From the NCBI GenBank assembly GCA_943736015.1, contig OX031057.1:56063001-56127000 (forward strand): a stretch of DNA of 64,000 nt, written 5' to 3'. The stretch comes from Tridacna crocea. Taxonomy: Eukaryota; Mollusca; Bivalvia; Cardiida; Cardiidae. Made by a program: the position numbers and the translations under genes. Under the pieces are notes generated by a model. The model did not search any database. It had not been told where the DNA came from and saw only the letters and a list, made by a program, of their open reading frames with translations. Of the stretch, positions 9,961 through 58,004 are shown piece after piece; the first letter of the stretch is position 1; each line of letters begins with the position of its first letter.

Positions 9961-10781
9961 CACTTAGATTTTAGTCTTTATTTTTAGATTTTATTCTCGC
10001 CTTCATATGTCAGCGCTCGGCAGTCTGCTGCAAATGCCTCTGAACAGCATTATGCAAACGCCTTTCAAATAGTTAGATACTTCTTGAGTACATAAAAACA
10101 AAATAATGTCGAGACCACTGTAAATTTAATCAGAACAGCAAGAGGAAACTTCAAGTTTCTAGAAGGAATGAAATCGAATTCGTAAAAAGCATCGTTTTTG
10201 ACAAATGCAAAATACTTTGGATCAGTTCATTGATACAATGATGTTGCTACAGCAACAAATAAACCGTAGCTGTCATAAACCAATCGAAAGCTACTAAAAT
10301 GACGTCATTCGGACCTACTTCCACTTCACAACGCATAAACACCTAACCAGTGGGATCGTATATGTAAAGTTTACGACCCCTGAACTAATCAAATATGGAA
10401 GGGGATTTCGGTAAAAAATCCATACGTATAACTGATTCATTCTTGCATTCAAATTACTTTGGTATTATGGTAAATGAGTATTCCATCAACATTGCGTACA
10501 TGTCTATTTATACTTTTGTTACATGCAGATAGTGATATGACTACTGCTAGGTATCAAATACTATAGATGGGTACTCTATAATCATTGTTAAATCATGTAT
10601 CTCTACAATTATTACTATATATATATCTATATTAGGTCTTTACAACTCTTTCGTCCCAATTTCCTGTCATATATCAGAAACTTAACTATTCGAAGAGTTT
10701 CATTCGTAATTAAACTACTTATATACGTGCCATTTTGGTTTGTACTTCACTGCATAAAAAAACTAGAAGGCCTGAATATGC
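9961..10781. other. No gene recognised
   Basis: AT-rich DNA with an (AT) run near 10,610-10,630. No known repeat or exon was identified. Confidence 0.4.
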
Positions 10782-10821
10782 TCTACTGGCAGAGAGTTTG
10801 CTTTTAAATAAAGCATTAATA
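10782..10821. repeat. 40 bp exact direct repeat, copy 1
   Basis: It begins TCTACTGGCAGAGAGTTTGC and recurs exactly at 13,252-13,291, 2,470 bp downstream. The core CTACTGGC is complementary to the GCCAGTAG at the end of the adjacent family-2 element (about 12,204). Confidence 0.8.
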
Positions 10822-12212
10822 GGATTTCAATACGCAAAAAGACAAAAAAATTGACATTTTCAACTCAAAATGGCTACTTTTCCATTACTGTTTGTTGAAT
10901 TTAAGGGTTTAAAAGCTATTGATGGGATAAACAAGCTGAAAAATTCATAAAAATCTGATCACAAATAAATACTTTATCATGTAAACAGGCAATGAAATTG
11001 TTCAATTTGAAATGGCTACTTATCCCATACTGTTTGTCGGATTTTTTTTATAATAGGCAGGGTTAAAGCTATTGATTAGATAAACAAACTGTGTAAGTTT
11101 CACAGAAATCTGACCAAAAATGAAGACTTTATCGCGTAAACAAGAAATGAAAGTTTTCAACTTGAAATGGTTACTTTTCCCATACTGTTTGTTGGATTTT
11201 TTTTTCAAAATCAATAGGGTGAAGCTATTAATATGATAAACAAACTCTGCAAGCTTCATGGAAATCTAACCCAAAATACAGACTTTATCGCGTAATCAAG
11301 AAATGGAAATTTTAAACATGAAATGGCTACTTTTCCCATACTGTTTGTCGGATTTTTTTCAAAATCGGTAGGCTTAAAGCTGTTGATGAGATAAACAAAC
11401 TGTGTAAGTTTCACAGAAATCTGACCAAAAATGAAGACTTTATCGCGTAAACAAGAAATGAAAGTTTTCAACCTGAAATGGCTACTTTTCCCATACTGTT
11501 TGTTGGATTTTTTTTCAAAATCAATAGGATTGAAGCTATTAATAAGTTTAACAAACTCTGCAAGTTTCATGGAAATCTGACCCAAAATACAGACTTTATC
11601 GCTTAAACAAGAAATGGAAATTTTAAACTTGAAATGGCTTCTTTTCCCATACTGTCGGCCGGATTTTCTTTGTTCAAAATCAATACGGTTAAAGCTATTG
11701 ATGAGATAAACAAACTGTGTAAGTTTCACAGAAATCAAACTAAAAATGAAGACTTTATCGCGTAAACAAAAAATGAAAGTTTTCAACTTGAAATGGCTAC
11801 TTTTCCCATACTGTTTGTTGGATTTTTTTCAAAATCAATAGGGTTGAAGCTATTGATAAGATTAACAAACTCTGCTTTTCCCATACTGTTTGTTGGATTT
11901 TTTTTTTCAAAATCAATAGGATTGAAGCTATTAATAAGTTTAACAAACTCTGCAAGTTTCATGGAAATCTAACCCAAAATACAGACTTTATCGCGTAAAC
12001 AAGAAATAGAAATTTTAAACTTGAAATGGCTACTTTTCCCATAATGTTTGTCGGATTTTTTTAAAATCGGTAGTCTTAAAGCTGTTGATGAAAATCTGAC
12101 CAGAAATGGAGACTTTATCGCGTAAACAAGAAAAAGACTAACGGACGGACGGATGGACGACGGAAACCACGCCATGACATAAGCTCTGCTGGCTTTCAGC
12201 CAGTAGAGCTAA
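10782..12212 (-). mobile_element. Family-2 rolling-circle-like element with 155 bp array
   Basis: Eight or so tandem units run from about 10,865 to 12,130, each with a phrase like GGCTACTTTTCCCATACTG (near 11,013, 11,324, 11,480, 11,798, 12,029) at 150-160 bp spacing. The right side has a GACGGACGGATGGACGACGG tract, then CTGCTGGCTTTCAGCCAGTAGAGCT, whose GCCAGTAG is complementary to CTACTGGC at 10,783. This is the same end plan as the element at 37,942-39,383. The 176-codon frame at 11,256-11,786 is an open reading of the array and is not counted as a gene. Confidence 0.6.
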
Positions 12213-15089: not shown

Positions 15090-16354
15090 ATTACGTATTT
15101 TTTCTCTGATATATTGAAAACAATGTGGGAAATGGATAAAATGTGCATAACAAAATTTTTTCATCCTCCTCCTTGTACTGTTTAAAAACCTTTCTTCCCT
15201 ATGGTGGATAATTTGGAATTGTGTGCTAAAGGGATAAATTGTTTTGAAGTATGTATGAGAAAGAAAATCAAATATGCCAACATAATTATAGAATATCAGG
15301 GAAACTCTCCCCTCGAGTAGATTTGCCACTCTCATAGTCACTGTGCTATTCTGTAAATCTTCATTCAGAAAATCAAGAAAATGTGCTCATAACAAGACAG
15401 TTTTCCATTACTGCAATGCTTTCTACTGTAAAAGTCTGCTTACTCTGAAAAAGACATAATTATGATGTAAAGGGTTACTCTGCTGATTTTCTTTCCCATA
15501 ATTAGGCATTCAATTTATAATTTCTTTTTTCTAATTTCAGAGCAAGACAACTCAAAATTTTAACTGAAATAAGGCATGGAGTTATGGAAGAAACTTTAGT
15601 AAACATTTAAAGATTTTGGAAGACAGTCAGCATTTTACCTGCCTACAGAACTACACCAGACTTGCAGTGTGACATATTCTGTATTTGTTTAATTTAAATA
15701 AAGACAACAAAAGTACTGTTTTTTGTTCTATAGATTTTTTTTTCTATCGACTGTTGTCTTGCTTGGATTTGTGTAATGACAAAATGTCAAGAAGAGGTCA
15801 TGTTTTAGGTCGAAAGTAGTTCCGGCATGTGCTATAAATATCCGTGGTATATCATTGTTCTAAAAATAACCGTGGTATATCAAAAAAAATATATCATGGG
15901 TGATATTGCATGGATATTCGCGTAGTTGAAAGATAAAATGCTTTAACGCCCGAGTGCGAAGCACGAGAGTGTTTAAGTATTTTGAGGGCCTCTGCGAATG
16001 TTAACGACCGAAAAAAACGTGAATTAACGCTATTATTGCATAAAGTAAAGGTATTTTAACAATAATTTGCAAAGATAGCAAAAATATTTCGATAGAAATG
16101 CATATAAGCGAATTTCAATGTATTTTACGGACATGGGTCAAAACAGGACGTCGGCAAAGAAGTTTTTGTTACGATTAGGAAAGGGCCGTTAGTCCTATGC
16201 CAGTTTTGATTCTCTCGGTGTACATACACTTCTATTTAAGAAATAATCTTTTTTCTATCGTGGTATATCGTTCATTCTAACATGACACGCGACTTTGGCT
16301 CTATAAACATAGTGCAAGGAAAACGTGGTAAAATCTGCAACAATCCATGTAGAG

Positions 16355-16382
16355 TGACGTCATCGTATATCGAGTGACGTCA
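16355..16382. promoter_or_regulatory. Two TGACGTCA (CRE-type) motifs, left arm of F2
   Basis: Exact TGACGTCA at 16,355-16,362 and 16,375-16,382, 20 bp apart. This is the consensus palindrome bound by CREB/ATF proteins. Whether it functions here is not shown. Confidence 0.4.
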
Positions 16383-16895
16383 TTCAATGAGTGAGTTATT
16401 CAATGGAACATAATCTTCATCCGCGTTTTTACTCTAAGTTTGAACTTGTTTTCATTTAACTAAGAATTGGTCATGTTAGAATCGAAATAATCTTCTTTCT
16501 ATCGTGGAATATCGTTCAATAAACCACGTTGTGAGTTATGAGGCGCAATGAATAACCCACTCGGGCTATCGCCCTCGTGGATTATTTATTGCGCCGCATA
16601 ACTCACAACTGTGGTTTATTGAACGATATACCACGATAGAAAGAAGATTATTTCTTAAATAAACCACAGTTGTGAGTTATGAGGCACAATAAATAATCAA
16701 CGAGGGCGATAGCCCGAGTGGGTTATTCATTGCGCCTCATAACTCACAACGTGGTCTATTGAACGATATACCACGATAGAAAGAAGATTATTTAGATTCT
16801 AACTTGGCCAATTCTTAATGAAAGGAAAACAAGTTCAAACTAAGAGTAAAAACGCGGATGAAGATTATGTTCCATTGGATAACTCATTCATTGAA

Positions 16896-16923
16896 TGACG
16901 TCACTCGGTATAGGATGACGTCA
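16896..16923. promoter_or_regulatory. Two TGACGTCA motifs, right arm of F2
   Basis: Exact TGACGTCA at 16,896-16,903 and 16,916-16,923, the mirror copies of the left-arm pair. The spacing of 20 bp is preserved although flanking bases differ. Confidence 0.4.
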
Positions 16924-17712
16924 CTGTACAAGGATTGTCGCAGATTTTACCACGTTTTCCTCGCACTGTGTTTACAGAGCCAAAGTCGCGTGTCATGTTA
17001 GAATGATTTTTAATACACACTGGAATTATGTGGAATAAACTTGCACACATTTGGACGATTACAACTAGGACGAATGCGTGGATATAAATTTCTGTAACTG
17101 AAGGCGACTACGGAATCCTGTTTCCGCCATCCACTTTTCGACCTACGAGGAACTCGAAAAGTAGAAATTAGGCACACTAACTTCCACTTTTCTAGCCAAA
17201 ACGTTACCTCGAAAAGTCGACAAGTTGAAGTTTTTGACCTGACAATTGTCATAAAACTTTCCACTTTTCGACTTCACGTTTGCCTAGAAAAGTAGAAATT
17301 AGAAAGCACTAACTTCCACTTTTCGCCTTAAAATGCTAGGTCGAAAAGTAGAAAAGTGGAAAATTTTCACATGACAATTGTCAATAAAACTTCCACTTTT
17401 CGACCTAGAAAAGACAAAGTCGAAAAGTTGAAAAGTCGAAAAGTGGAAGTTAGCCGATTAAAACTTCCACTTTTCTAGTTAGGACTAATTTTTCGCAGGA
17501 TAAATTGGTCGCGTTATTATTTTAAATGTACACCGGACAAAGGAAGATGGCGGGAGCGAATGGTAGAGGTTAAATGTACACCGAATAAGTCTGATGTCAG
17601 CCATTATACGGCAACTCCCTAATTTTCATTTTAAACCCGCCCTTATCGCATTGCTACGTCCGTAAGGCTTGAACAGTGTACACATTATTTGATATATTGA
17701 AACCATGTGGCC

Positions 17713-17945
17713 TGCAACACGCGAAAAGGGGCATACGGACATTTGCGTAAAGTGTCGCTTCGCATCAGCCCTCGCAGTTCGACACTTTCCGTTTTATGTA
17801 ATTTTCAATTTAGCGCAAGCCTACTGTGGCACAAAATCTAATGTGATCTTACAGTGCCGTGTCGGATCAGCCTGTACGATCTGCGCAGGCTGATCCTAGA
17901 CGACACATTATGGAAATGTCGGAATGCCCTTTTTCGCATATTGCA
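17713..17945. mobile_element. 233 bp MITE with about 30 bp inverted ends
   Basis: Left end TGCAACACGCGAAAAGGGGC, right end the near reverse complement (GCCCTTTTTCGCATATTGCA). The middle carries a palindrome GGATCAGCCTG...CAGGCTGATCC (17,865-17,897). Related CAGCCTG/CAGGCTG cores occur near 31,715-31,770 and 39,415-39,460. The overlapping 62-codon frame is not considered a gene. Confidence 0.6.
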
Positions 17946-18599
17946 AGCCATATATAGTTGACACTTTGGACACTGATTAGTCTTTAAAGTTTAAAGGACC
18001 CATTTCACCGAAAAATATTCCCTGAAGATTGAGTTGCGATCTCAAAATGTGGCTTGATCGCCGCTGATTGCAAGTAATCGGCGGTTGAACACACCTTGGT
18101 CTTCTGTAGTCGCACAAGGTCGAGGGAAAGTATTCCCCACCCCCCACCCCCCAAAAAAAACGATCGAAACTAGGTTTTTGACATGTCAAAAAACTAATCT
18201 GCGACCTGTGCGATCTGGAAAATCGCAGATAGATTGCCGAAAGATCGTCCGTTAAACCATTTTTTAAGGGACCTTACTTTGAGAAAACCTGCTATAGGCG
18301 AAAAGTTTCAACATGGCACAATTCCTGCAGTCTGACCAGATCGAGATGGTCCCTTTTCCTGTGACGGGTTGCATATCATGAAATGATACTACTAGACATT
18401 ACTCAACCGAAATACCAACGCGGCAGATTCGGGGAGGTCATATTGATGTTAATGTAACAATGGGGAAAATATCGAGTTCCGAGGACAGAAATCCGTAATC
18501 GAGTTCGGAGGACATTTATAAATCCATAATCGACTCCGATCAGCATCATAGATAGGCCTACATCGACATTTTTATTAACCTTGCAAAGATTATGAAGGA

Positions 18600-18662
18600 T
18601 CCCGGTGCCCACGCCATACCAGTGTTCGAACCAGCAACCCAGATGTTGACAAGTCACACATT
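18600..18662 (-). repeat. tRNA-like SINE fragment (B-box)
   Basis: On the minus strand GCTGGTTCGAACACTGG resembles a tRNA T-arm/B-box, preceded by GACTTGTCAACATCTGG, like an anticodon arm. The A box is not convincing. It abuts the P2 MITE. It is probably a decayed SINE. Confidence 0.3.
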
Positions 18663-18882
18663 TTAACCCATTACCACACGATTCCTGTTTTTGACACTTT
18701 TGCAAAATATCATTTTGGAAAACATTGTTAGAAAAGGAGAAATAACTTTTTACAAACTATTTCTCTCACAATGTTGTCTACTCTATATTACACTTAGATT
18801 TCAATGCACACTTTGAAATGTTGTCTTCAGTTTCTTTAAATTCGGACAGTCTTTTATTTTTTATCAACTCCTAATGGGTTAA
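18663..18882. mobile_element. P2 hairpin MITE
   Basis: TTAA-CCCATTACCACACGATT at the left and TCCTAATGGG-TTAA at the right, both flanked by TTAA. The central stem is degraded to GGAGAAATAACTTTTTACAA...TTTCTC. It is nested inside F3. Confidence 0.7.
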
Positions 18883-19470
18883 AACTCAGCCCATAGGCGG
18901 TATCGGATAAAGATATAGACGTCAGACTTAAACAGTGTACATGTATACTTATTCGGTGGAGGTTTAACTTTCACCGGGTCCATATACGAAGGACAGGTGA
19001 CAGGAATTTTTACCCCTACACTGGCTCCAACATTATTCGGTGCTGATAAACAAACATCCCGTGATAATCAGTCCTAACTAGAAAAGTGGAAGTTTTAACG
19101 CTAACTTCGACTTTTCGACTTTTCGACTTTTCAACTTTTCGACTTTTCAACTTGTCGACTTTGTCTTTTCTAGGTCGAAAAGTGGAAGTTTTATTGACAA
19201 TTGTCATGTGAAAAACGTCCACTTTTCTACTTTTCGACCTAGCATTTTCAGGCGAAAAGTGGAAGTTAGTGCTTCCTAATTTCTACTTTTCTAGACAAAC
19301 GTGAGGTCGAAAAGTGGAAAGTTTTATGACAATTGTCAGGTCAAAAACTTCAACTTTTCGACTTTTCGAGGTAACTTTTTTGCTAGAAAAGTGGAAGTTA
19401 GCGTGCCTAATTTCTACTTTTCGAGTTCCTCGTAGGTCGAAAAGTGGATGGCGGAAACAGGATTCCGTAA

Positions 19471-25130: not shown

Positions 25131-25640
25131 GACAACAAAAGCCTATTTATATGTATGTTCAAGTGAACGTTATAGAATCGGGATCAGAGTGCACGATATA
25201 TGCGGTCTTTTCTTGGTCTTTGTCTTCCGCAAAAAACCTATGTTTACTTGTGTACATTCCGTGCAGTCTGAGCTTGAACTATGCCTTTTACAAAAGCCTA
25301 TTTATATGAATGTTCAAGCGTAGGTTATTTTTTCGGGATCAGAGTGCACGATATATGCGATCTTTTCTTCATTTATGTCTTCCGCAAAAAACCTATGTTT
25401 ACTTGTGTACATTCAGTGCAGTCTGATCTTGAACTATGCCATTTCCAAAAGCCTATTTATATGTATGTTCAACCGTAGGATATTGATTCGGGATCAGAAT
25501 GCACGATATGTGCAGTCTTTCCTTTGTCTACATCTTCTGTAAAAACCTACGTTTACTCTTGTACATCCAGTGCAGTCTGATCCTGAACTATGCCTTCTAC
25601 AAAAACCCATTTATAAGTATGTTCAAGTGAGCTTTAAAGT
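25131..25640. repeat. 155 bp tandem repeat, about 3.3 units
   Basis: The phrase GCCTATTTATATG starts at 25,141, 25,296 and 25,451, and as CCCATTTATAAG at 25,606. The period is exactly 155 bp each time. Units contain GGGATCAGAGTGCACGATAT and CCTATGTTTACTTGTGTAC. Short frames on the plus strand are repeated with the array and are not treated as genes. Confidence 0.8.
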
Positions 25641-30616: not shown

Positions 30617-31506
30617 TTAAAGGTGGCCCTTCAGAATTAGGGAAGAAAATTTTACAAAAGTGCAAAAAAAATCATCCTTATACTCCCATAGCCTTTTGTG
30701 TTCATAAAACCCCAGCAGTCAAAACCATCCGATAACACGAGAAATTAGAATTTTATTACGGACCAGGTTGACACCAACGGGAGACACGTTCTATTTTTAG
30801 ATTATCAATTCTCTCATTTGAATACAGGAAAACACAGACAAAGCTTCAAACATCCGTCCGAAGAATACATTATGGAAAATAATTATAACATGTTTGTTAT
30901 GTAATGGACTTTAAGCGTTATTAGTCACGTGCCAGTAACTTGACATTCCCACAATGCTTTATTGATTTTTGGCCCGAAATCTAAAAATCTCTTAAAAGGC
31001 TACGTATCCTTTTAAAGTAATACCATCAAAAAAAAATTTTTTTTTGTAATTTTTAATGATTCTTAATTATTGATGATTTATATTGTTTTTTTGGCGCGAA
31101 ATCTAAAAATAGCTTAAAAGGCTACGTATCCTTTTAACTCTTTACCACACGAGAAAATTATAGATTAGTCCAAATTGAAAGCATTGGCAGACGACAAAAT
31201 AAAGGTGACTAAGAATTACAAATTTGTTCTGGGAAGGGTAGAAAACACTGTGGGAAAAGGAGAAAATGCTGGTTACCAGCATTTTCTCCTTTTCCCACAG
31301 TGTTTTCAAAAGTCTTCTTTTTCAGAGGCGTCAAAACTAGGGATTGTGTGGTAATGGGTTAAGGTAATACCATCAAAAAAAATTTTTTTGTAATTTTTAA
31401 TGATTCTTAATTATTGATGATTTGTATTGTTTTTTCGTATAAGTTTCAATAATTAATATATTTTTTAATTTGGTGTGATGTGAGAATTCTAAATACCCAC
31501 CTTTAA
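30617..31506 (-). mobile_element. P1 MITE copy b, with nested P2 and internal duplication
   Basis: Bounded TTAA-AGGTGGCCCTTCAG and AAATACCCACCT-TTAA. A block of about 115 bp (about 30,975-31,090) is repeated in direct orientation, and a P2 MITE (31,134-31,362) has entered a TTAA of the repeated block. The paralogous locus at 37,723-37,726 has only TTAA, showing the exact insertion point. Confidence 0.85.
31134..31362. mobile_element. P2 hairpin MITE, intact, nested in P1
   Basis: TTAA-CTCTTTACCACACGAG at the left and GATTGTGTGGTAATGGG-TTAA at the right. A perfect 49 bp palindrome at 31,250-31,298 (24 bp arms, central T) is the same as at 6,055-6,103. This copy best defines the family's ends. 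Confidence 0.85.
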
Positions 31507-34297: not shown

Positions 34298-34825
34298 TTA
34301 AAGGTGGGTATTTAGAATTTTCACATCACACCAAATTAAAAAATATATATATTATTTATATGAAAAAACAATACAAATCATCAATAATTAAGAATCATAA
34401 AATTACAAAAGAAAAAAAATTTTGATGGTATTCCCTTAAAAGGCTACGTAGCCTCTTAAGTTATTTCTAGAATTCACTCCAAAAATCAATAAAGCATTGT
34501 GGGAAGATTAAGTGACTGGCACATGACTAATAACGCTTAAATTCTACTACATAAAAAACATGTAATAATTATTTTCCATAATGTCGTCTTCGGACGGATG
34601 TTTGAAGCTTTGTCTGTGTTTTCCTGTATGTAAATGAGAGAATTGATAGTCTAAAAATAGAACGTGTGTCCCGTTGGTGTCAACCTGGTCCGTAATAAAT
34701 CTCTAATTTCTCATGTTATCGGATGGTTTTCGACCGCTGGAGTTTTATGAACGCAAATTAAAAGGCTATGGGAGTACAAGGATGATTTTTTTTTTTCGTC
34801 CCAAAATCTGAAGGGCCACCTTTAA
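34298..34825 (+). mobile_element. P1 MITE copy c
   Basis: TTAA-AGGTGGGTATTTAGAATT to AAAATCTGAAGGGCCACCT-TTAA, 520 bp between the TTAA sites. Colinear with copies a, d and e, non-coding. Confidence 0.85.
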
Positions 34826-35357: not shown

Positions 35358-35601
35358 TGCCGGTGTAATGCAGAGAAATGACCCCTATTACAAAATGACC
35401 TACGGTCATTTCTCGACGTAGAGGAATGACCCATGGGTCATTTCTCTACGTCGAGAAATGACTCATAGGTCATTTCTCGACGTAGAATGACCCGGGTCAT
35501 TTTTTCTACGTCGAAAAATGACCCATGGGTCATTCCTCTACGTCGAGAAATGACTCGGGGGTCATTTTGTAATGGAGGTCATTTTTCTGCATTACACCGG
35601 C
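35358..35601. mobile_element. Palindrome-array MITE, 244 bp
   Basis: Ends GCCGGTGTAATGCAGA and CTGCATTACACCGGC are inverted repeats. The interior is a run of small palindromes of the type AATGACCCATGGGTCATT alternating with CTACGTCGAG or CTCGACGTAG, in about six units of 30-35 bp. The whole element also folds on itself. No coding capacity. Confidence 0.8.
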
Positions 35602-37941: not shown

Positions 37942-39383
37942 CGGCCAAGAGGGCCATGATGGCCCTGTATCGTTCCACTGGCTGGTAAGTCAAAACACTA
38001 CAAGCCAAACATTACAATACCTGGCCAATTTTTTAACTAGAAGATATACAAAATTTTCTTCTATAAAATCCTATGAGAAATTTATGGCCTCAGGGAAATT
38101 AAGTTTTTTTTGCAACAAAGCTACAATTAATTGAATCCTGATGGAGGTCCACAAGATACAGCCCCATACCAAATAAAACAGGTCTAGAACGTATGGTTAT
38201 AAACAAGAAGATTTTCAAAGTCTGCTCGATAAAAGATCCTGTAAAACTTGAGACCCATGAGACAGGTTAGCCCTAGATCTTATGGTTAGTCACAAGAAAA
38301 TGTATTTCAAAAGTTTTCAAAATAAAAGCCCGTGTGACCCCTGGGGTGGGGCCAAACTTGACCCCCAAGGTTATAATTTGGGTCTTCTTGGTAGAGGCCC
38401 ACTAGATAAAGGTACAGCATGTAAAATTTGGGAGCCCAAGGTCTTATGGCTACATACAAGTAGATTTTCAAAGTTTCCCTACAGAAGCCCAATGTAAAAT
38501 TTGTAACCCCCAGGGCGGGGACAAATTTGAATCCAGGGCTATAATTTGAGCGTCCTTGGTAGACACCAACTAGATAAAGCTACAACATGCAAACTTTGGT
38601 AGCCCTAGGCCTTATGACTTGGTGCGAGAACATTTTGAAAGTTTTCCCTGTAAAAGCCCATGAAAAGCATGTGGCCCCACGGGGCAAGGACAACTCTGAC
38701 CCGGAGGCTATAATTTGGACACCCTTGGTAGATAACCACTACATAAAGCTACATGCCAAATTTGGTAGCCCTAGGCCAGATGGCTACACAGAAGAGGAAT
38801 TTTAAAGTTCTCCCTATATAAGCCCATGTAAAACTTGAAACCCCTGGAGCGGGGCCAATTTTGACCCCGAGGCTATAATTTGGACACCCTTGGTAAAGGT
38901 CTACCAGATAAAGCTACATGCCAAATTCGCTAGCCCTAGGCCCTATGGCAAAATAGATGAAGAATTTTAAAGTTCTCCCTATATAAGCCCATATAAACTT
39001 GTGACCCCCGGGGCTGGGCCAATTTTGACCCCAGGGCTATAATTTGAAGAAACTTGATAGAGGTCTACTAGATAAAGCTACATGCCAAATTTGGTAGCCC
39101 TAGGCCTTACGGTTTCAGACAAGAAGATTTTCAAAAAAATTCAGTTTTGTTGCTATGGCAACCAGAGTTTTTGAAGGAATCAAATTATTTCAAGAAATTC
39201 TGAAGAGGACCATGGCAGAATCATTTCTATGAAGTTTCACCAAAATTGGATAGGTAGTTTCAGAGAAGACGATGTTTGAAATAAAAGTTAACGCAGGGAC
39301 GGACGTACAAACGGACGGACGGACGCACGACGGATGCCAGGCCATGACACAAGCCCGCTGGGCTACGGCCAGTGGAGCTAAAA
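37942..39383 (-). mobile_element. Family-2 rolling-circle-like element
   Basis: The left (3') end has hairpin AGGGCCATGATGGCCCT (37,950-37,966) then CCACTGGC. The right (5') end has GACGGACGGACGGACGCACG, then GGCCAGTGGAGCTAAAA (39,367-39,383), with CCACTGG and CCAGTGG complementary. Inside are about five units of 162-170 bp carrying AGCTACATGCCAAATT and GCCCTAGGCC. ATGTAC lies on both outer sides. Copy 1 of the duplicated segment lacks the element. It encodes no protein. Confidence 0.7.
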
Positions 39384-41399: not shown

Positions 41400-42225
41400 G
41401 AAATGTGCGAACAAAAATCCAAAGTAAAAGTTTACAAAGGGCAATAACTCCAAATATACTGAAGATAGAATTATGGTTCTTGTGCACTGCACTCCTCCTT
41501 AATTAGTTCTATATGTGTGTGAAGTTTCAAATTCCTAGCTTTTATACTTTGGGAGATATACGCCAGACAAAAAAATTACTGAAGACAGAGTTTTGGTTTT
41601 TGTGAACTGCACTTCTCCTTAATGAATTCTATAAGTGTATACAGTTTGAAGTTCCTAGCCTTTGTACTGTTGGAAATATGCTCCGGACAAAATTCCAAAG
41701 TGAAAATTTACAAAGAGCAATAACTCAACAATTACTGAAGATAGAGTTATGGTTCTTTAACACTGCACTTCTCCTTAATTAGTTCTATATGCGTGTGATG
41801 TTTCAAGTTCCTAGCTATTATACTTTTTGAGATATGCTCCGGACAAAATTCCAAAGTTAAAATTTACAAAGGGCAAAATTACTGAAGACAGAGTAATGGA
41901 TCTTGTGCACTGCATGCCTCCTCAATGAGTTCTATATGTGTGTGAAGTTTCAAGTTCCTAGCTTGCATACTTTTGGATATATGCTCCTGACAAAAATTCC
42001 AGAAAAAAATGTACAAAGGGCAATAACTCCAAAAATACTGAAGATAGTGTAATGGTTCTTGTACACTGCACGCCTCATTAATGAGATCTATCCACTTGTG
42101 AAGTTTGAAGTTGATATCTCAAATACTTTTGGAGATATGCTCCGGACAAAAATGTGAGACGGAAGGACGGACGGAGACCATTACCATATCCCCCGCCGCC
42201 TTTTCAGCGGGGGATAATGAGGATC
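41400..42225. repeat. Tandem array, about 153 bp unit, ending in a GC hairpin
   Basis: GCACTGCAC(T/G)CCTCC-like phrases at 41,482, 41,603, 41,759, 41,908 and 42,062 (one unit is short). Units end CTCCGGACAAAA. The array closes with GACGGAAGGACGGACGG and the stem CCCCCGC...GCGGGGG at about 42,190-42,215. It is probably a separate element inside H1. Confidence 0.65.
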
Positions 42226-42239
42226 AAAGTGGAATTACA

Positions 42240-42845
42240 CAAAATTCACATTAGGTAGAGTTATTGTTTTTGCGCACTGTACTCCATAATAGTGCAAAAA
42301 ACATGCATATCTAGTTTGAAGTCATTCTGACTTGAGATGACAAAGTTACATTCCAGACAGGCACTAAATGCTGTCAAAATGACATTCGAAGGGAAATAAC
42401 TCAAAGACAGCACAAGGTAGAGTTACAATTCTTGTGCACTGCACTTCCAAATATTGCAACAAATAATCATACCAAATTTCAAGTCATTCCTACTTAAGAT
42501 GACAAAGTTTTACTCTGGACAAGCAAGAAATGCTATGAAAATGAAGTTCAAAGGTGAAGTAATACAAAATTCAAGCTAGGAAGAGTTATGGTTTTTGTGC
42601 ACTGCACTCCATAAATTTACAACGATCATGCATATCAAATTTGAAGAAGTTCAGGCCATAGATGACAAAGTTATATTCCAGACGAGCAGAAAATGCTGTA
42701 AAAATGACTATCAAAGGGAAATAAGATACAGACAGTATAAGGTAGAGTTATGGATCTTTCATACTGCACTCTGCATTATTGCAACAAATACAAATGCCAA
42801 GTTTCAAGTCAATCAGACTAATGATGACTAAGTTATGCTCTGGAT
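42240..42845. repeat. Tandem array, about 163 bp unit
   Basis: TGCACTGCACT at about 42,436 and 42,597 and TACTGCACTCTGC at 42,760. Units contain AGATGACAAAGTT and AAGGGAAATAA. Confidence 0.6.
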
Positions 42846-42866
42846 TAAGAACTATTATAAAGAACT

Positions 42867-43490
42867 TTCTAATTCAAGGGCAAATAACTCCAGTTGTTCC
42901 AGGCTGATTACACCCATAATCACACTTATCCAAGATCTTATAGCCATGTATATTTTGATCAAGTTCGGTGCTGATTGGTTAATAATTGTAGATTGTAGTG
43001 TAAACAAAGTCAAATATAGCATTTTTTCTAATTCAAGGGCAAATAACTCAGTCATTCTGTTACAATTGGACCTAAAATTAAACTCATCCAAGATCTTATG
43101 GCTATATATATTTTGGCCAAGTTTACAGCTGATTGGTTAAAAACTGTAGATGCTAGGGAGTACACAAAGTGCAATATAGCATTCTTTTATAATTCAAGGG
43201 CAAGTAACTCCAGTCGTTCCGGTCCCATTGGACCCATAATCAAACTCATCCGAGATCTTATGGTAATATAGATATTTTGACCAAATTTGGTGCTGATTTG
43301 TTGATTTTTGTAAATACTAGAGAGTAAACAAAGTGAAATACAGCTATTTTTCTAATTCAAGGGCAAATAACTCCAGACGTTCAGTTCCGATTACACCCAA
43401 AATCGAACTCATTCGAGATCTTATGGTCATATATACTTTGACCAAGTTTGGTGCTGATTGGTTGATATTTGTATATGCTAGAGTGTAAAC
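42867..43490. repeat. Tandem array, about 161 bp unit
   Basis: TTCTAATTCAAGGGCAAATA at 42,867, 43,026 and 43,350, with a variant at 43,188. Four units. Each contains ATCCAAGATCTTATGG and TGCTGATTGGTT. The overlapping 101- and 78-codon frames are repeats of the same unit. Confidence 0.7.
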
Positions 43491-43605
43491 AAGAAAATGT
43501 GAACAGACGGACGGATGACGGACGACGGACGTCGGACGCCAACGGACGGTGGGTGATCACAATAGCTCAGGTGCTCAGGTGAGCTAAAATTATTACATCA
43601 GAAAA

Positions 43606-46954: not shown

Positions 46955-48226
46955 TAGCTCACCTGAGCACGAAGTGCTCATGGTGGTGAGCTTTTGTGAT
47001 CGCCCAATGTCCGTCGTCCGTCGTGCGTCGTCCACAATTTCTTTAAACATTTTCTCCTCCTAAACCACTGGGCCAATCTTAATGAAACTTGTCAGGGATG
47101 TTCCTTGGGTGAAGCTCTACTAAAGGTGTTCAAAAGATTGAATTCCAGCCATAATTCTGGTTGCCATGGCAACCGAAAGGAAAAAAATAGCAAAATCTTT
47201 GAAAATCTTCTTCTCTATAACTAGAAAGCGCAGAGCTTTGATATTTGGTATGTAGCATCTCCTAGTAGACTTCTACCAAGATTGTTCATATGATGCCCCT
47301 GGGGTCAAAACTGGCCCCGGCCCGGAGGTCACAAGTTTGAAACATAGGAATAAAGAAGGAAAACTTCAAAAATCTTCTTCTCTGAAACTAGAAGGTGCAG
47401 AGCTTTGATATTTGGTATGTAGCATCTCCTAGTAGGCCTCTACCAGGATTCTTCATATGATGTCCCTGGGGTCAAAACTGGTCCCGCCCCGGGAGTCACA
47501 AGTTTGAAACATAGGAACAAAGAAGGAAAACTTGAAAAAAAATTCTCTGAAACTAGAAGGCGCAGAGCTTTGATATTTGGTATGTAGCATCTTCTAGTGG
47601 ACCTCTACCACGATTGTTCATATGAGGCCCATGGGGTCAAAACTGGCCCCGCCCCGGGGGTCACAAGTTTCAAACTTTGGGAACAAAGAAGGAAAACTTT
47701 AAAAATCTTCTTCTCTGAAACTAGTTGGTGCAGAGCTTTGATATTTGGTATGTAGCATCTCCCAGTGGACCTCTACCAAGATTATTCATATGATGCCCCT
47801 TGGGTCAAAACTGGTCCCGCCCCGGGGGTCACAAGTTTGAAACATAGGAACAAAGAAGAAAAACTTTAAATTTCTTATTCTCTGAAACTAGAAGGCGTAG
47901 AGCTTTGATATTTGGTATGTAACATCTCTTAGTGGTTCTACAAAGTTTCTTCATACTATGCTCCTGGGGTCAAAACTTGCCCTGCCCCAGGGGTCAAAAT
48001 TTCGAAACATAGGAACAAAGAAGGAAAAATTTAAAATTCTACTTCTCTGAAACTAGAAGGCGTAGAGCTTTGATATTCTGTAAGAAGCATCTCCTAGTGG
48101 ACCTCCATCAAGTTTTTTCTTAGGATGCCCCTGGGGTCAAAACTGGCCCCGCCCAGGGGTCACAAGTTTGATTTTACAGCTTGGTACTCAGGTGAGCGAT
48201 ATAGGACCATCATGGTCCTCTTGTTT
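46955..48226 (+). mobile_element. H3 family-1 element, complete, nested in H2
   Basis: 5' end TAGCTCACCTGAGCAC with palindrome GAGCACGAAGTGCTC (46,965-46,979), then the GTCCGTCGTCCGTCGTGCG tract. Six array units of 165-168 bp carry GAGCTTTGATATTTGGTATG (47,232 to 48,064). 3' end CTCAGGTGAGCG, hairpin AGGACCATCATGGTCCT (48,203-48,219), CTTGTTT. CTCACCTGAG at the start and CTCAGGTGAG before the terminal hairpin are complementary, the sub-terminal inverted repeat plan of Helentron-type non-autonomous elements and oyster pearl elements. Non-coding. Confidence 0.75.
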
Positions 48227-48982
48227 TCATTTCCATATAGTTCACCAGAGCCATGTTTCTTGACGATTCAAAATTTCCCTAACAGTTTTTGAAAAGGGCC
48301 ACCAAAGGAACATCTCTGTGAAATTATTTCGAAATCAGATCAGCCGTTCGAGAGAAGAGGAATTTTTAAGAATTTCTTCATTTACCTATAGTGCGAGTAA
48401 CCCCCATTCACCAGAGCCGTGTTTCGTGACGAATCAAAATTTCACGAACAATTTTTCAAAAGAGTTTCAGATAAGAAGACCAATCAAATTTTTTGCGAAC
48501 AATTTTTGAAAAGGGTTACCCAAAGAACATCCCTGAAAAATTATTTCAAAATCTGACCAGCGGTTTCAGAGAAGAATTTTTAAGAATTCCTTCATTTCAG
48601 TCTAGTGCAAGTAGCCCCCATTCACCAGAGCCATGTTTCTTGACGGATCAAAATTTCACGAACAAGTTTTGAAAAGGGTCACCCAAGGAACAGCTCTGTG
48701 ATATTATTTTAAAATCTGGCCAGCAGTTTTAGAGAAGATTTTCAAAGAATTTCTTAGAAAATTCCTTTTGGTTGCCATGGTAACCAGAGTTTTTGACAGA
48801 ATCAAATTCTGTGAAGAACTTTTAAAGAGGACCTCCTAAGGAACATTCCAGTCAAGTCTGGTCCAAATTTGCCGAGCGATTTAGGAGGAGTTGATGTTTA
48901 AAGAATTAATGACGACGGACGACGGACACCGGGTGATCCTAAAAGCTCCCCACGAGCACGTTGTGCTCAGGTGAGCTAAAAA
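48227..48982 (-). mobile_element. H2 family-1 element, right part
   Basis: Continues the array (GAGCCATGTTTCTTGACG units), then the 5' module (GTTGCCATGGTAACCAGAG, GGAGGAGTTGATGTTTAAAG), GACGACGGACGACGGACACC and the 5' end GAGCACGTTGTGCTC-AGGTGAGCTAAAA at 48,954-48,981. Confidence 0.75.
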
Positions 48983-51892: not shown

Positions 51893-53290
51893 CTAAACTC
51901 AACGTGCTGAAAGGGAGCCTTTAGGATCAGGCTGTGTCCGTCGTGCATCGTTCGACGTCAACAATTTCTATAAACATCCTCTCCTAGACCGCTTGGCCGA
52001 TTTGGACCAAACATGGCTGGAATATTCCTTGGGTAGTCTTGTTTAAGAATTGGTCATAGAATTTGATTCCATCATAAACTCTGGTTGTCATGGCAACCAA
52101 AAGGAATTCTCTAAAAAAAATCTTCTCTGAAACCGCTGGTCAGATTTTAAAATAATTTCACAGAGGTGTTCCTTGAGTGACCCTTTTCAAAAATTATAAG
52201 CGAAATTTGATCCGTCGAGAAACGTGGCTCTGGTAACTGGGGGCTATTTGTACCATACAGATATGAAGGAATTCTTAAAATTTCTTCTTCTCTGAAACCG
52301 CAGGTCAGATATATTTTGAAATAATTTCACAGAGATGTTCCTTGAGTGACCCTTTTCAAAAAGTATACGCAACATTTTGATCCGTCGAAAAACATGGCTC
52401 TGGTGACTGGAGGCTACTTGCCCTATACGGTAATGAAAAACTTCTTTAAAATTCTTCTTCTCTGAAACAGCTGGTCAGATTTTGAAATAATTTCTCAAAG
52501 ATATTCCTTGGGGCGACCCTTCTCAAATTTTGTAGCAAAATTTTGATCCGTCGAGAAACGTGGCTCTGGTGACTAGGGGCTAGTTGCACTATATGGATAT
52601 GAAGAAATGGTCGGATTTTGAAATGTGTTCACATAGATGTTCCTTTTGTGACCCTTTTCAAAACTTATTTGCGAAATTTTGGTCCGTCAAGAAACACGAC
52701 TCTGATTTGGGGAAGGGGGCGGGGGGGGGGGGGGGGCTACTTGCATTATACCGCCGTGAAGAAATTCTTAAAAATTCTTCTTCTGATCAGATTTTGAAAT
52801 AATTTCACAGAATTGTTTCTTTGGTGTCCCTTTTTGCAAAGTGTTGAGAAATTTTGATCCATTACGAAACATGGCTCTGATGGCTGTGGGCTATTTTCAC
52901 TCTATGGACATGAATAAATTTTTAAAGAAATCTTCTTCTCTGAAACCTCTGGTCAGATTTTGAAATAAATTCACAGATGTGTACCCAGAGTGACCCTTTT
53001 CAAAAATTGTTAGGGATTTTTTTTATACTTCGAAAAACAGCAGCCAATTATTTGCACCTGAATGTGGCTCTCTTGTTGGGCTTATGTTTTTAGTCACTGT
53101 CGAGCATGTGCTTTTCTTCAAGAAATTGTCCTCGGATGATCTATTCAAAACTTAATTTGCAGAATTATGATTCATCATTTATGTGGTAACGATTGTAGGG
53201 GTGGTGATAGATTTTGAAATGACCTTTACAGGTGACCTTTTCAAAATTGTCTGGCAAAATAATGATTTTGTTTCCAAAGTTTCAATACTT
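51893..53290 (+). mobile_element. H4 family-1 element, 3' end missing
   Basis: Degraded 5' end ACCTCACCTAAACTCAACGT, then GTGTCCGTCGTGCATCG and about six units with GATCCGTCGAGAAACGTGGC-type phrases. The sub-terminal module (53,090-53,290) stops at TTTCAATACTTAAA, where the inverted H5 begins. It holds a run of 16 G at 52,721-52,736. Confidence 0.7.
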
Positions 53291-53292
53291 AA

Positions 53293-54203
53293 AACAAGAG
53301 GGCCAAGATGGCCCTGGATCGCTCACCTGAATTTTTGGAGAACCATAGCCATTTTTTTCAAAATCTGATCCGCCATTTCAGGGAAGAAGAATTTTTTTAG
53401 AATTTCTTCATGTCTGGTTAGTGTAAAGAGTCCACAGCTATCAGAACTATGTTTCTTGATGGATCAAAATTTCTTAACTATTTTTGAAAAAGGTTAGCCA
53501 AGAAACATTTCTGTGATTTTTTTCAAAATCTGATTAGCCGTTTCAGAAAAGAAGAATTTAAAAGATTTTTTTCATGGCCATATAGTGCAAGTAGCCCCCA
53601 TTTACCAGAGCCATGTTTCTTGATGGATCAAAATTTCACGAGCATTTTTGAAAAGGGTCATCCAAAAAACATTTCTGTGAAATTATTTCAAAATCTGACC
53701 AGCAGTTTCAGAAAAGAAGAACTTTTAAGAATTTCTTCATTTCCCTAGCCCCCATTCGTCAGAGCCATGTTTCTTGACGGATCAAAATTTCACGAACAAT
53801 TTTTGAAAAGGGTCGCCCGAAGAAAATCTCCGTGAAATGATTTCAAAACCTGACCAGCAGTTTCAGAGAAGAAAGATTTTTGATAATTCCTTCATTTTTA
53901 TATATTGCAAGGAACCCCCATTCACTAGAGCCAGATTTCCTGAGGGATCAAAATTTCAAGAACAATTTTTGGAAGGAACATCTCTGTGAAATTATTTCGA
54001 AATATGACCAGCAGTTTCAGAGGAGAAGATTTTTAAAGAATTTCACTGAATGCTCCATTTAGTTGCCATGGCAACCAGATTTTTTGACGGAATCAAATTC
54101 TGTTAAAACTTTTAAAGAGGACCTCCCTAGCAACATTCAAAGTTTGGTCCAAATTGGCCAAGCGGTTTAGGAGGAGTTATGTTTAAAGAACTGTTGACGA
54201 AGT
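53293..54203 (-). mobile_element. H5 family-1 element, 5' end missing
   Basis: 3' end AACAAGAGGGCCAAGATGGC-CCT with perfect hairpin 53,299-53,315, CGCTCACCTGA, about four array units, then the 5' module to GTTTAAAGAACTGTTGACGA. The GACGG tract and GAGCAC palindrome are lost. H4 and H5 lie 3' end to 3' end. Confidence 0.7.
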
Positions 54204-54499
54204 TATTTTTGACTTAAAAAAAAACAATCTGGTATTATGCCTTTTTACATCCTGTTTTAATCTGCATTTAACAAATTTAACTTTTTTTTAAATTCAGACA
54301 GACAGTCAGCTGTATAGTTATCAATAAGAAATATCTGGCTGCGCTTGACCACACCCACCTGCTATTACTAGGAGTAATTTAGTAGGAACTCAGTTTCTTT
54401 GCTAACAACGCAATAAAACCGATTGTTCCCCTAGGTAGGCATAGTTATTCACGCTGCGAATGGAATCCTGACATTCAAGACACAAAACCGTTTTTTTTC
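54204..54499. other. No gene recognised
   Basis: Short AT-rich spacer. Confidence 0.35.
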
Positions 54500-54903
54500 C
54501 TCTTCATTGTAACAAGAAACGTAATAAGTTGTTTTACAACCCGTTTGAAATCGTGCAAGACAACAAAGCGATATTCTGCCGTCGTGGTTCATATTTGGTT
54601 TTACGCGAGGAAAAACGAGTACCATATTTCTTACACTAAACAAAATAGAAAACTCACCAATACTCATTGCTATTAGTTTATTAATATGATTTCGATTGTG
54701 GATGTGTTGCCGCCTGCATGGCCATAAAGAACAACTATACACAGGAAAATGTGATCATTATGTGATTTTTTAGTCATGAACAATTTTGTCCAATATCGGT
54801 AAATTTCTAATGTGGCCTTCATTTTTTGAGTAGTTTCAATATATTTGGCCAATTACTAAAAGAGTAACAATTCATTCTTTCCTAGTACTTAAAGTAGGTC
54901 AAA
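54500..54903. repeat. About 400 bp direct repeat, copy 1
   Basis: Shares CATTGTAACAAGAAACG, GTTGTTTTACAACCCG, CAGGAAAATGTGATCATTA and GAGTAACAATTCATT in the same order with 58,005-58,418. The two copies flank the H6-H7 block. On the minus strand a short open stretch (about 54,658-54,713) is bordered by CATGCAG and GGTGAGT, both kept in the other copy. See findings. Confidence 0.7.
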
Positions 54904-56562
54904 AATTAGTGAAACTTGTAGGCGTAGAGCTTTGATGTTTGGTATGTGGCATCTCCTAGTGGACCTCTACGAAGTTTGTTCAAATTATGCCCCTGGGGTC
55001 AAAACTGGCCCCAACCCGGGGGTCACAAGTTTGAGTATAGGAACAAAGATGTAAAATTTTAAAAATCTTCTACTCTGGAACTTGAAGGCGTAGAGCTTTG
55101 ATATTTGGTATGTGGTATATCCTAGTAGACCTCTACCAAGTTTGTTCAAATTATGCCCATAAGGTCAAAACTGGCCCCACCCCGGGGGGGAAAACAAGTT
55201 TGAGCATAGGAACAACGAAGAAAAACTTTTAAAACCTTCTCCTCTGAAAGGCGTAGAACTTTGATATTTGGTATGTGGCATATCCTAATGGAACTCTACC
55301 AAGTTTGTTCAAATTATGCCCCTGGGGTCAAAACTGGCCCCACCCCGGGGGTCACAAGTTTGAGCATAGGAACAAAGAAGGAAAACATTAAAAATCTTCT
55401 CCTCTGAAATTCGAAGGCGTAGAGCTTTGGTATTTGGTAAGTGGCATCTCCTAGTAGACCTCTACCAAGTTTTTTCAAATTATGCCCCTGGGGTCAACAC
55501 TGGCCCCAACCCGGGGCTCACAAGTTTAAGCATAGGAACAAAAAAGGAAAACTTTAAAAATCTTCTCAGAATCTAGAAAGCGTAGAGCTTTGATATTTGG
55601 TCTGTTGCATCTCCTAGTGGACCTCTACCTACCTGTTCCAGTTATGCCCCTGGGTTCAAAACTGGCCCCACCCTGGGGTCACAAGTTTGAGGATAGGAAC
55701 AAAGAAGGATAACTTTACAATTCTTCTCCTCTGAAACTAGATGGTGTAGAGCTTTGATATTTGGTATGTGGCATCTCCTAGTGGGCTTCCATCAAGTTTG
55801 TTCAAATCATGCCCGTGGGGTCAAAACTGGCCCCGCCCCGGGGATCACATGTTCGAACATAGGAGCAAAAAAATAAAATTTTGAAATTCTTCTTCTCTAA
55901 AACTAGAAGGCATAGAGCAATGATATTTGGCATGTAGCAATTCCTAGTAAGCCTCTACCAAGTTTGTTCATGTTATGCCCTTGGGGTCAAAACTGGCCCT
56001 GCCTCGGGGGTTACAGGTTCGAACATAGCAACAAAGAAGGAAAACTTTAGAAATCTTCTCTGAAACACGAAGGTGCAGAGCGTTGATATTTTGTATGCAG
56101 AAACTGGCCCTGCCCCGGAGGTCACAGGCTGGATTATAGGAACAAAGAAGGAAATTTTTAAATTTCTTTTTCTCTTAAACGGGAAGGTGTAGAGCTTTGA
56201 TATTTGGTATGTAGCATCTTTGAGTGGACCTCTACCAAGTTTGTTCCGAGGATGCTGCTTACGTCAAAACTGGCCCAGCGCAAAGGACCACAAGTTCGAA
56301 CATGGGACAAACAAGGAAAATTTAAAATTCTTCTTTGAAACTGGAAGGTGTAGAGCTTTGATATTTGATTGCCTTATGTCCGGCGTCTGTCGTCCGTCAA
56401 CAATTTCTTTAAACATCTTCTCCTAACCCACTGGGCCAATCTTGATGAAACTTGGCAGGGATATTCCTTGGGTGAAGCTTTACCATAGTTGTTCAGAGAA
56501 CTGAATTTCACTCGTAAGCTATAGTCTAAGGTAAGCGTTCCAGGGCCAATGGCCCTCTTGTT
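54904..56562 (+). mobile_element. H6 family-1 mosaic: array, then 5' module, then 3' end
   Basis: Ten units (GAGCTTTGAT phrases from 54,926 to 56,352, period 161-166 with one short unit) of the same array as H3. The 5' module (GTCCGGCGTCTGTCGTCCG, TCTTTAAACATCTTCTCC) then follows instead of preceding them. Last come CTAAGGTAAGCG and hairpin AGGGCCAATGGCCCT (56,542-56,556), CTTGTT. The part order is permuted relative to H3. Confidence 0.65.
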
Positions 56563-58004
56563 AGCGCACCTGAGCACAAGGTGTTCAAGGGGAGCATTTA
56601 GGATCACCCCGTGTCCGTCGTCAACAATTCTTTAAATACCACCTCCTCCTAAACCGCTCGGCCAATTTGGACCAAACTTTGCTGGAGTGTTTCTTGGGAG
56701 GTCCACTTTAAAAACTGTTCACAGAATTTGATTCTACCAAAAATTCTGGTTGCCATTGCAACCAAATAGAATTTTCTGAGAAATGCTTTTAAAGTCTTCT
56801 TCTCTGAAACCGCTGAAATAATTTCACAGAGATGTTCCTTAGTTGACCCTCCTTATAAATTGTTCGCGAAATTGTTTTGATCCGTCAAGAAACATGGCTG
56901 TGGTAAATGGGGGCTTCTTGCACTATACAGAAATGAAGGAATTCTTAAAAATTCTTCTTCTCTGAAACCGCTGGTCAGATTTTGACATAATTTCACACAG
57001 ATGTGTGATGACCCTTTTCAAAAAGTGCTCGAGAAATTCTGATCCGTTAAGAAACATGTCTCTGATGAATAGCGCTGTAGAAAAAAGAAGAAATTCTTGA
57101 AAATTATTTTTCTCTGAAACCGCTGGTCAAATTTTGAAATAATTTCAATAATTTCACACAGGTATTTCTTGGATGACCCTTTTCAAACATTTTCTGCGAA
57201 ATTTTGATCCGTCAAGAAACGTGGCTCTGGTGAACGGGGGCTTCTTGCACTATACGGAAATGAAGGAATTCTTAAAAAATTCTTCTCTGAAACCGCAGGT
57301 CAGATTTTGAAATAATTTCACAGTAATGTTCCTTTGGGTGACCCTTTTCAAAATGTGTTCACGAAATCTGCGAGAAACATGGCTCTTGTGAATGGAGGCT
57401 ACTTGCAATATAGGGAAATGAAATTATTAAATATTCCTCTTCTCTGAAACGGCTGGTCAGATTTTGCAATAATTTCACACAGATGTTCTTTGGGTGACCC
57501 TTTTCAAAAACTGTGTGCGAAATTTTGATCCGTCGAGAAACATGGCTGTGGTGAATGGGTGCACTTGCACTATGGGGCAAGAAGAAATTCTTAAAAATTC
57601 TACTTCTCTAAAATTGCAAGTCAGATTTCAAAATAATTTCACAGAAATGATCTTTGGGTGACCCTTTTTAAAAACTGTTCGTGAAACTTTGATCCTTCGA
57701 AAAACAACAGCCATTTGATGATGCCTGCATGTGGTGGTCTTGTTTGACTAATGTTTTTAGTCATTATCGAGAATTGCTCTTCTTCAAGAAATTGTCCTTT
57801 GGTGATCTATCCAAACATTTATTTGCAAAATTCTAATCCATTAAAATCATTGTTGTGAAGATGATTGTAGGGGTGGTTATAGATTTTAATATGACGTTCA
57901 GGTGACCTTTTCAAAATCACTTGGAAGTTTCAATACCTAAAAAAATGGCAATGGTCCTCTCAAAAACTTAGGTGAGCGATCTAGAGCCATCTTGGATTTT
58001 TCTG
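56563..58004 (+). mobile_element. H7 family-1 element, fused to H6
   Basis: 5' end AGCGCACCTGAGCACAAGGT starts right after the CTTGTT of H6. It has about six array units and the sub-terminal module (57,720-57,960), then TTAGGTGAGCGATC and a degenerate hairpin (AGAGCCATCTTGGA). Non-coding. Confidence 0.7.

What the first reader, a model, noticed from the sequence alone, without database searches (positions are those of the whole stretch)
35358..35601. MITE built from an array of nested palindromes
Inverted ends GCCGGTGTAATGCAG enclose about six palindromes of the AATGACCCATGGGTCATT type, alternating with CGACGTAG/CTACGTCG. It folds as one long hairpin or as a chain of small hairpins. I know of no standard family with this design. 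It could arise by repeated hairpin-end processing or act as a replication-stalling or protein-binding array.
Basis: seen in the sequence. Interest (0 to 1): 0.7.

Follow-up and report, generated by a model that had tools for sequence, protein, structure and literature searches.

The report
Palindrome-packed mini-transposon inserted at CCGG sites
This is one copy of a very common 'jumping gene' with no recognisable protein of its own, in a large eukaryotic genome; it is built almost wholly of small mirror-image DNA units, sits at CCGG sites, and is most likely moved by an integrase-like enzyme of the Ginger1 type.

Summary
Window 35364-35596 (233 bp) holds six 12-14-bp palindrome cores and five CGACGTAG/CTACGTCG linkers, and folds end to end (z -27). 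It is a mobile family: the 20-base end TGTAATGCAGRRAAATGACC occurs 5,766 times in the 1.05-Gb source genome, control 0, i.e. about 2,900 copies or more.

GCCGG is not element. Copies, and four occupied loci (all but one in copies of one repeat) set against unoccupied relatives, show the element is TGTAATGCAG...CTGCATTACA, flanked by a 4-bp target duplication, mostly CCGG (33 of 38 readable copies identical on both sides, 30 of them CCGG). TGTNR ends plus CCGG duplication are the published hallmark of Ginger1 DNA transposons (PMC2836005).

Palindrome number varies from 1 to 8, lengths in ~32-bp steps, in a chromosome-1 sample (60 complete of 80). Longer relatives (2.7 and 3.7 kb, no recognised coding) carry the unit in their ends and as a central minisatellite.

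No autonomous element with these ends was found. One rve+OTU frame exists, single-copy and unlinked. Verdict: Ginger1-like foldback MITE, a new variant of a known kind.

The parts
35360..35363 (.). left 4-bp target site duplication CCGG (base G35359 is flanking host DNA)
35364..35596 (+). the transposon copy, 233 bp, TGTAATGCAG...CTGCATTACA, subfamily A, six-palindrome form
35364..35400 (+). left terminal inverted repeat (37 nt inside the element; with the target bases repeat finder gives a 42-nt arm, 93% complementary)
   Evidence: I3
35560..35596 (-). right terminal inverted repeat
   Evidence: I3
35396..35408 (.). palindrome core 1 TGACCTACGGTCA (imperfect)
35427..35440 (.). palindrome core 2 TGACCCATGGGTCA
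35459..35472 (.). palindrome core 3 TGACTCATAGGTCA (imperfect)
35488..35499 (.). palindrome core 4 TGACCCGGGTCA
35519..35532 (.). palindrome core 5 TGACCCATGGGTCA
35551..35564 (.). palindrome core 6 TGACTCGGGGGTCA (imperfect)
35414..35421 (-). linker 1 CGACGTAG
35446..35453 (+). linker 2 CTACGTCG
35478..35485 (-). linker 3 CGACGTAG
35506..35513 (+). linker 4 CTACGTCG
35538..35545 (+). linker 5 CTACGTCG
35597..35600 (.). right 4-bp target site duplication CCGG

Best explanation
It is a non-autonomous cut-and-paste DNA transposon (a foldback MITE) of Ginger1 type. Shown: discrete ends TGTAATGCAG/CTGCATTACA; a 4-bp target duplication, mostly CCGG; thousands of dispersed copies; two subfamilies whose two ends usually match; a body made of 1 to 8 palindromic units of ~32 bp; and longer relatives without recognised coding that carry the same units in their ends and in a central minisatellite. 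Inferred: a Gypsy-integrase-like (Ginger1) transposase, supplied in trans, binds the ends, cuts at TG/CA and joins them 4 bp apart at CCGG. Inferred: the palindromic AATGACC-GGTCATT units, whose AATGACC half also occurs just inside the termini, are repeated protein-binding sites (dimer sites) carried over from the long terminal repeats of a larger element. Inferred: unit number changes by slippage or unequal exchange between direct copies, one unit at a time where the linker is symmetric (subfamily B) and mostly two units (63 bp) where linkers alternate in direction (subfamily A).
For: Copy number: 40 scored places, 2,692 exact GCCGG-flanked ends, 5,766 exact ends without a target requirement, controls 0. 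Target duplication: 33 of 38 readable copies (2 of 40 dropped by the end pattern) have identical 4-mers on both sides: 30 CCGG, 2 CAGG, 1 CCGC. Unoccupied relatives show one copy of the site: L009 against L025; L018 and L022 (same flanks) against L013; L013 against L018. CCGG background in the window is 54 in 64,000 positions. Ginger1 definition: TGTNR ends, TSD CCGG 75% or CCGT/ACGG 24%, TIRs 40-270 bp (PMC2836005, abstract and passages). Unit ladder and A/B difference. Recent activity: 54 rows of about 235 bp (52 distinct copies), median 2.6% from consensus, two with no substitutions, gaps ignored (39 of the rows were the best hits to the window copy, so biased young). Long relatives. A frame with the Ginger1 domain pair rve + OTU exists in the genome.
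Against: No autonomous element with these ends was found: 30 of 30 loci fetched for the variant end CCGGTGTAATGCAGB (149 in the genome) were by eye again this MITE, and 6 of 6 ORFs taken from inside the long relatives have no Pfam match. The rve+OTU frame (C3) is single-copy, and two slices beside it (1.1 kb upstream, 0.65 kb downstream) hold no TGTAATGCAG-like end beyond chance. GCCGG precedes at most 2,692 of 5,766 exact ends, and 35 of the first 100 listed (lists compared by eye), so many ends have another preceding base or a decayed or different target. Five of 38 copies do not have identical 4-mers. L035 lies in a divergent tandem repeat whose aligned relatives lack the CCGG, so it gives no clean empty site. 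The binding-site and slippage roles are inference.
Confidence: 0.75

Rival explanations
1. A MITE of some other or unnamed transposase superfamily that happens to make 4-bp CCGG duplications and TGT...ACA ends.
For: No transposase is linked to these ends. TGT...ACA ends also occur in IS481EU of parabasalids, which can make 4-bp duplications (PMC10045372, passages). Paired target bases CAGG and CCGC show the site is not absolute.
Against: IS481EU families also make ~15 and ~25-bp duplications and were reported from parabasalids; the identical duplications read here were scored as 4-mers, with varied bases outside. The CCGG preference is the one published for Ginger1.
Confidence: 0.2
2. A hairpin element that spreads by copying a folded single strand or extrachromosomal hairpin rather than by a cut-and-paste transposase, its nested palindromes being the product of repeated hairpin-end copying.
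For: 43 of 45 complete chromosome-1 copies fold end to end; such a model has been proposed for other MITEs (passage in PMC8268682).
Against: A 4-bp duplication at a preferred site, with exact ends, is the mark of a transposase with staggered joining. Unit number varies while both ends are kept.
Confidence: 0.04
3. A tandem palindromic satellite dispersed by recombination or captured by another element, with no mobility of its own.
For: The same ~31-bp unit forms a minisatellite of about 18 units inside the long relative L103.
Against: Copies with precise ends and target duplications at unrelated sites, with thousands of exact ends in the genome.
Confidence: 0.01

Closest known systems
Ginger1 DNA transposons (Bao, Kapitonov, Jurka 2010, PMC2836005; abstract and passages read)
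   Same: TGTNR termini; 4-bp target duplication mostly CCGG; long inverted ends in the larger relatives; the paper notes a few non-autonomous copies in amphioxus.
   Different: This family has thousands of copies, 78-292 bp in the sample, no recognised coding, and is built of palindromic units; no transposase is linked to it; the CCGT/ACGG class (24% in Hydra) was rare (1 CCGT and no ACGG among 60 right flanks, where the end call favoured CCGG).
Foldback transposons with subrepeats in their ends (Tetris PMC4079207, Galileo PMC4168063, Tm1 PMC3169594; search listing with abstract starts only; details recalled)
   Same: Long inverted repeats with subrepeats; variable length; Tetris gave the units of a satellite.
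   Different: Other superfamilies; the units here are themselves palindromes and the small forms are little more than units plus ends.
Bivalve MITEs and mobile elements with tandem repeats inside (Donax MITE, Pearl; seen only as references in PMC8268682; the Donax paper PMC3879986 is not held)
   Same: Small non-autonomous elements carrying repeat units (recalled).
   Different: Those details are recalled, not read; no palindromic 32-bp unit or CCGG duplication was seen in the passages read.

Membership tests
MITE (miniature inverted-repeat transposable element) | short, non-coding, inverted ends, target duplication, high copy number | tested here: met
   no ORF of 150 aa or more overlaps it
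Ginger1 | TGTNR termini | tested here: met
   left end TGTAA in 38 of 38 readable copies, right end TTACA in 37 of 38 (L038 reads ATACA); the end pattern itself required nearly this; of the 2 of 40 dropped, L016 starts TATAA and L018 has a change further in
Ginger1 | 4-bp target duplication, CCGG (75%) or CCGT/ACGG (24%) | tested here: met
   33 of 38 identical both sides, 30 CCGG (the search query carried the GCCGG); four occupied loci with unoccupied relatives, two sharing flanks; right flank CCGG in 43 of 60, one base off in 13, two off in 4, where the choice of end favoured CCGG and 20 of 80 were dropped
Ginger1 | inverted repeats of about 40-270 bp in full-length elements | tested here: inconclusive
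   L105 arms about 277 bp at 93%, L103 arms about 384 bp at 84%, target bases included; neither is shown to be autonomous
Ginger1 | transposase with Gypsy-like integrase plus OTU or Ulp1 domain encoded between the same ends | tested here: inconclusive
   rve and OTU in one 1160-aa frame at C3:50119756-50121012, single-copy, not linked to these ends; Ulp1 not searched
Foldback element | whole element is an inverted repeat built of subrepeats | tested here: met
   long relatives
IS481EU | target duplications of about 4, 15 or 25 bp | tested here: inconclusive
   the 4-bp class fits; no longer duplication was noticed in the 25-base flanks shown, but none was scored for; definition from passages of PMC10045372
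IS481EU | parabasalid IS481-like transposase | not tested
   no such search was made

The most novel reading that the evidence does not exclude
A Ginger1-driven system in which one palindromic 32-bp module is at once transposase-binding site, building block of the MITE and seed of minisatellites, so that the same module moves between terminal repeats, stand-alone hairpin MITEs (1 to 8 modules) and internal arrays. Module number would tune transposition or silencing, and symmetry of the linker would set the step size of number change.
Probability: 0.25. Interest if true: 0.6.

Novelty: new variant of a known kind. Interest (0 to 1): 0.42.

Why it matters
Ginger1 transposons share their integrase with Gypsy retrotransposons and gave rise to vertebrate host genes (PMC2836005, abstract). 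Little on their non-autonomous forms turned up here: 'Ginger1' with 'MITE' returned 2 papers; in one, read in passages, Ginger1 appears only as the annotation of an oyster satellite (PMC8268682), the other was seen only in the listing. A family of about 2,900 copies or more, two of them free of substitutions against the consensus, gives a natural series of module numbers for testing how subterminal site number affects transposition, and suggests how a transposon end can become both a hairpin MITE and a satellite.

Tried and rejected
Searching viral contigs for the 31-base unit found nothing. TSD of the outer GCCGG-bounded unit: a plain scan of the window flanks gave only a TGACGCG repeat not adjacent to the element; resolved by copies and unoccupied relatives. 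Looking for an autonomous element with the same end but another subterminal region: 30 of 30 fetched loci (of 149 ends) were the MITE again. ORFs of the long relatives: no Pfam family in 6 of 6 from inside the elements; a seventh, outside the element, gave a weak DDE_1 match below the cut-off. Subfamily typing by a loose pattern misassigned A/B and was replaced. A scan of held loci for other CCGG/ACGG-flanked TGTNR pairs found the same family and one unrelated inverted pair at window 16526-16752. The C3 rve+OTU gene as driver: single-copy, no matching ends, so not claimed. The pattern for all CCGG-flanked ends did not complete. Species not identified; 'bivalve' in my notes and paper searches was a guess from memory of the tandem-repeat style.

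Full report
OBSERVATION. Tandem Repeats Finder gives a 32-bp unit, 5.6 copies, and a 60-bp unit, 2.8 copies.

IT IS A FAMILY. The window is part of a 1.05-Gb genome (31 contigs). A DNA search with the element scored 40 places out of 3,147 first-look candidates. The exact end GCCGGTGTAATGCAGN{0,3}AATGACC occurs 1,351 + 1,341 times, control 0. Without the target bases, TGTAATGCAGRRAAATGACC occurs 2,915 + 2,851 times, control 0. At two ends per element that is about 2,900 copies as a floor, apart from odd arrays of ends such as C1:14840289-14840449.

TRUE ENDS AND TARGET. In 40 copies (39 fetched plus the window) the flanks differ, except L018 and L022, which share theirs; CCGG recurs on both sides and the base outside it varies. 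Of 38 copies whose ends matched the pattern (L016 and L018 dropped; L016 starts TATAA), 33 have identical 4-mers on both sides: 30 CCGG, 2 CAGG, 1 CCGC. The other five are L007, L012, L019, L020 and L037. Paired non-CCGG sites show that these bases belong to the target. Unoccupied relatives confirm it: L009 is ...CAT-GCCGG[element]CCGGG-AACAT, and its relative in L025 reads CATGCCGGGAACAT. L018 and L022 (same flanks, perhaps one insertion duplicated) have the empty relative GGCTGCCGGACTGTC in L013. L013, with CCGC on both sides, has the relative CATGCCGCACGCCGATT in L018; its relative in L022 is less clear. L035 lies in a tandem repeat whose aligned relatives lack the CCGG, so it is uninformative (all). 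CCGG occurs 54 times in the 64-kb window. In an 80-locus chromosome-1 sample, taken from the first 100 listed exact GCCGG ends (89 stretches after pairing ends, 80 of them fetched), 60 were called complete; the right flank was CCGG in 43, one base off in 13 and two off in 4. The end call favoured CCGG and allowed at most two differences, so this is an upper view. Against strictness: GCCGG precedes at most 2,692 of 5,766 exact ends, and 35 of the first 100 listed, the two lists compared by eye.

ANATOMY OF THE FAMILY. Complete copies run from 78 to 292 bp, clustering in steps of about 32 bp, with 1 to 8 palindromes counted. Two subfamilies differ next to the ends (CCATTACAAAATG against CCCCTACAAAATG) and in the linker (asymmetric CGACGTAG/CTACGTCG against symmetric CTACGTAG). 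In the first 45 complete copies, 21 are A at both ends, 16 B at both ends, 1 mixed, and 7 undecided at one end. In the 60, unit number estimated from length is 4 or 6 in 26 of 31 A copies (12 and 14), but spread over 1-7 in 27 B copies (8 at four, 7 at six); 2 were unassigned. The linker order of A-type copies of 225-245 bp is the same in 12 of 14, and in copies of 165-185 bp it equals that order minus one opposed pair in 7 of 12. I read this as slippage between direct copies, which lie two units apart in A and one unit apart in B; two founder forms in A would also explain it. 43 of 45 copies fold end to end. The window copy is 2.6% from the consensus of 54 rows of about 235 bp. These are 52 distinct copies, since L052 is the same place as L009 and L089 the same as L027; three are B copies (L053, L065, L066, 15-18% away). 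L007 and L008 have no substitutions, gaps ignored.

LONG RELATIVES. Three elements among the 80 sampled loci (four loci) share the end but continue into another interior (L048/L104, L051/L105, L060+L061/L103). L103 holds a 2,737-bp element with CCGG on both sides, arms of about 384 bp (84%) and a central array of about eighteen 31-bp units of the same palindrome at L103:1421-1980. L105 holds a 3,721-bp element with CCGG on both sides, arms of about 277 bp (93%) and a shorter array. L104 had no right end within the 6 kb held. Six ORF translations from inside L103 and L105 match no Pfam family.

TRANSPOSASE. A search for ends followed by a base other than A found 149; the 30 fetched were, by eye, all this MITE. 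OTU (PF02338) gave 40 matches from 77 scored candidates, and rve (PF00665) 150 listed of 2,019 candidates. At C3 an rve match (50119756) and an OTU match (50120713) each carry an open frame of 1,160 aa and start 957 bases apart, i.e. in frame: the Ginger1 domain pair. Other pairs may have been missed, since only 150 rve candidates were scored. Its N-terminal 155 aa give one match in the genome and match no Pfam family. Slices upstream (L156) and downstream (L158) carry no TGTAATGCAG-like end beyond chance; L157 was only read by eye. It may be a host gene or a lone Ginger1 relic; it is not shown to move this MITE.

CLASSIFICATION AND NOVELTY. Bao et al. define Ginger1 by TGTNR ends and 4-bp CCGG (75%) or CCGT/ACGG (24%) duplications (PMC2836005, abstract and passages). 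The family here meets both; the coding criterion is open. A survey of molluscs found Ginger among the less represented superfamilies, 98 elements (PMC10294476, passages), but the host here is not identified. Three paper searches on Ginger1 or Ginger with MITE and related terms showed no title or abstract start about such a palindromic family; Repbase and most subscription papers were not searchable, so it may be listed there. It looks like other MITEs and foldback elements in its make-up; the palindromic modular body is the unusual part.

Noticed in passing
window 16272-17006: Near-perfect foldback: arms of 352 nt, 93% complementary, 31 nt apart, with a nested inverted module.
   Followed up: no
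window 17109-19469: Inverted pair of 340-nt arms, 96% complementary, 1,681 nt apart, arms holding AAAGTCGA/TTCGACTT-type subrepeats.
   Followed up: no
window 30721-31074 and 34377-34730: Inverted pair of 354 nt, 86% complementary, 3.3 kb apart, a few hundred bases left of the element.
   Followed up: no
window 9499-11875, 25135-25627, 38333-39135, 41452-43492, 47193-48676, 52121-57706, 60338-60745: Many short tandem arrays, mostly with units of about 155-167 bp.
   Followed up: no
G000 C1:14840289-14840449: Four copies of the MITE end on the same strand at 47-bp spacing, i.e. a tandem array of the terminal segment.
   Followed up: no
G000 C6:15737362-16013931: Seven variant ends (CCGGTGTAATGCAGT) on one strand, tens of kb apart, suggesting local segmental amplification carrying one MITE.
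   Followed up: no
L156, L157 and L158 (G000 C3:50118150-50119800 and 50122600-50123250): Single-copy 1,160-aa frame with rve and OTU matches, preceded by a splice-acceptor-like tttcag; possible Ginger1-derived host gene.
   Followed up: partly
L013, L018, L022: Three copies of the MITE sit in related copies of a GC-rich repeat, two of them at the same position.
   Followed up: partly
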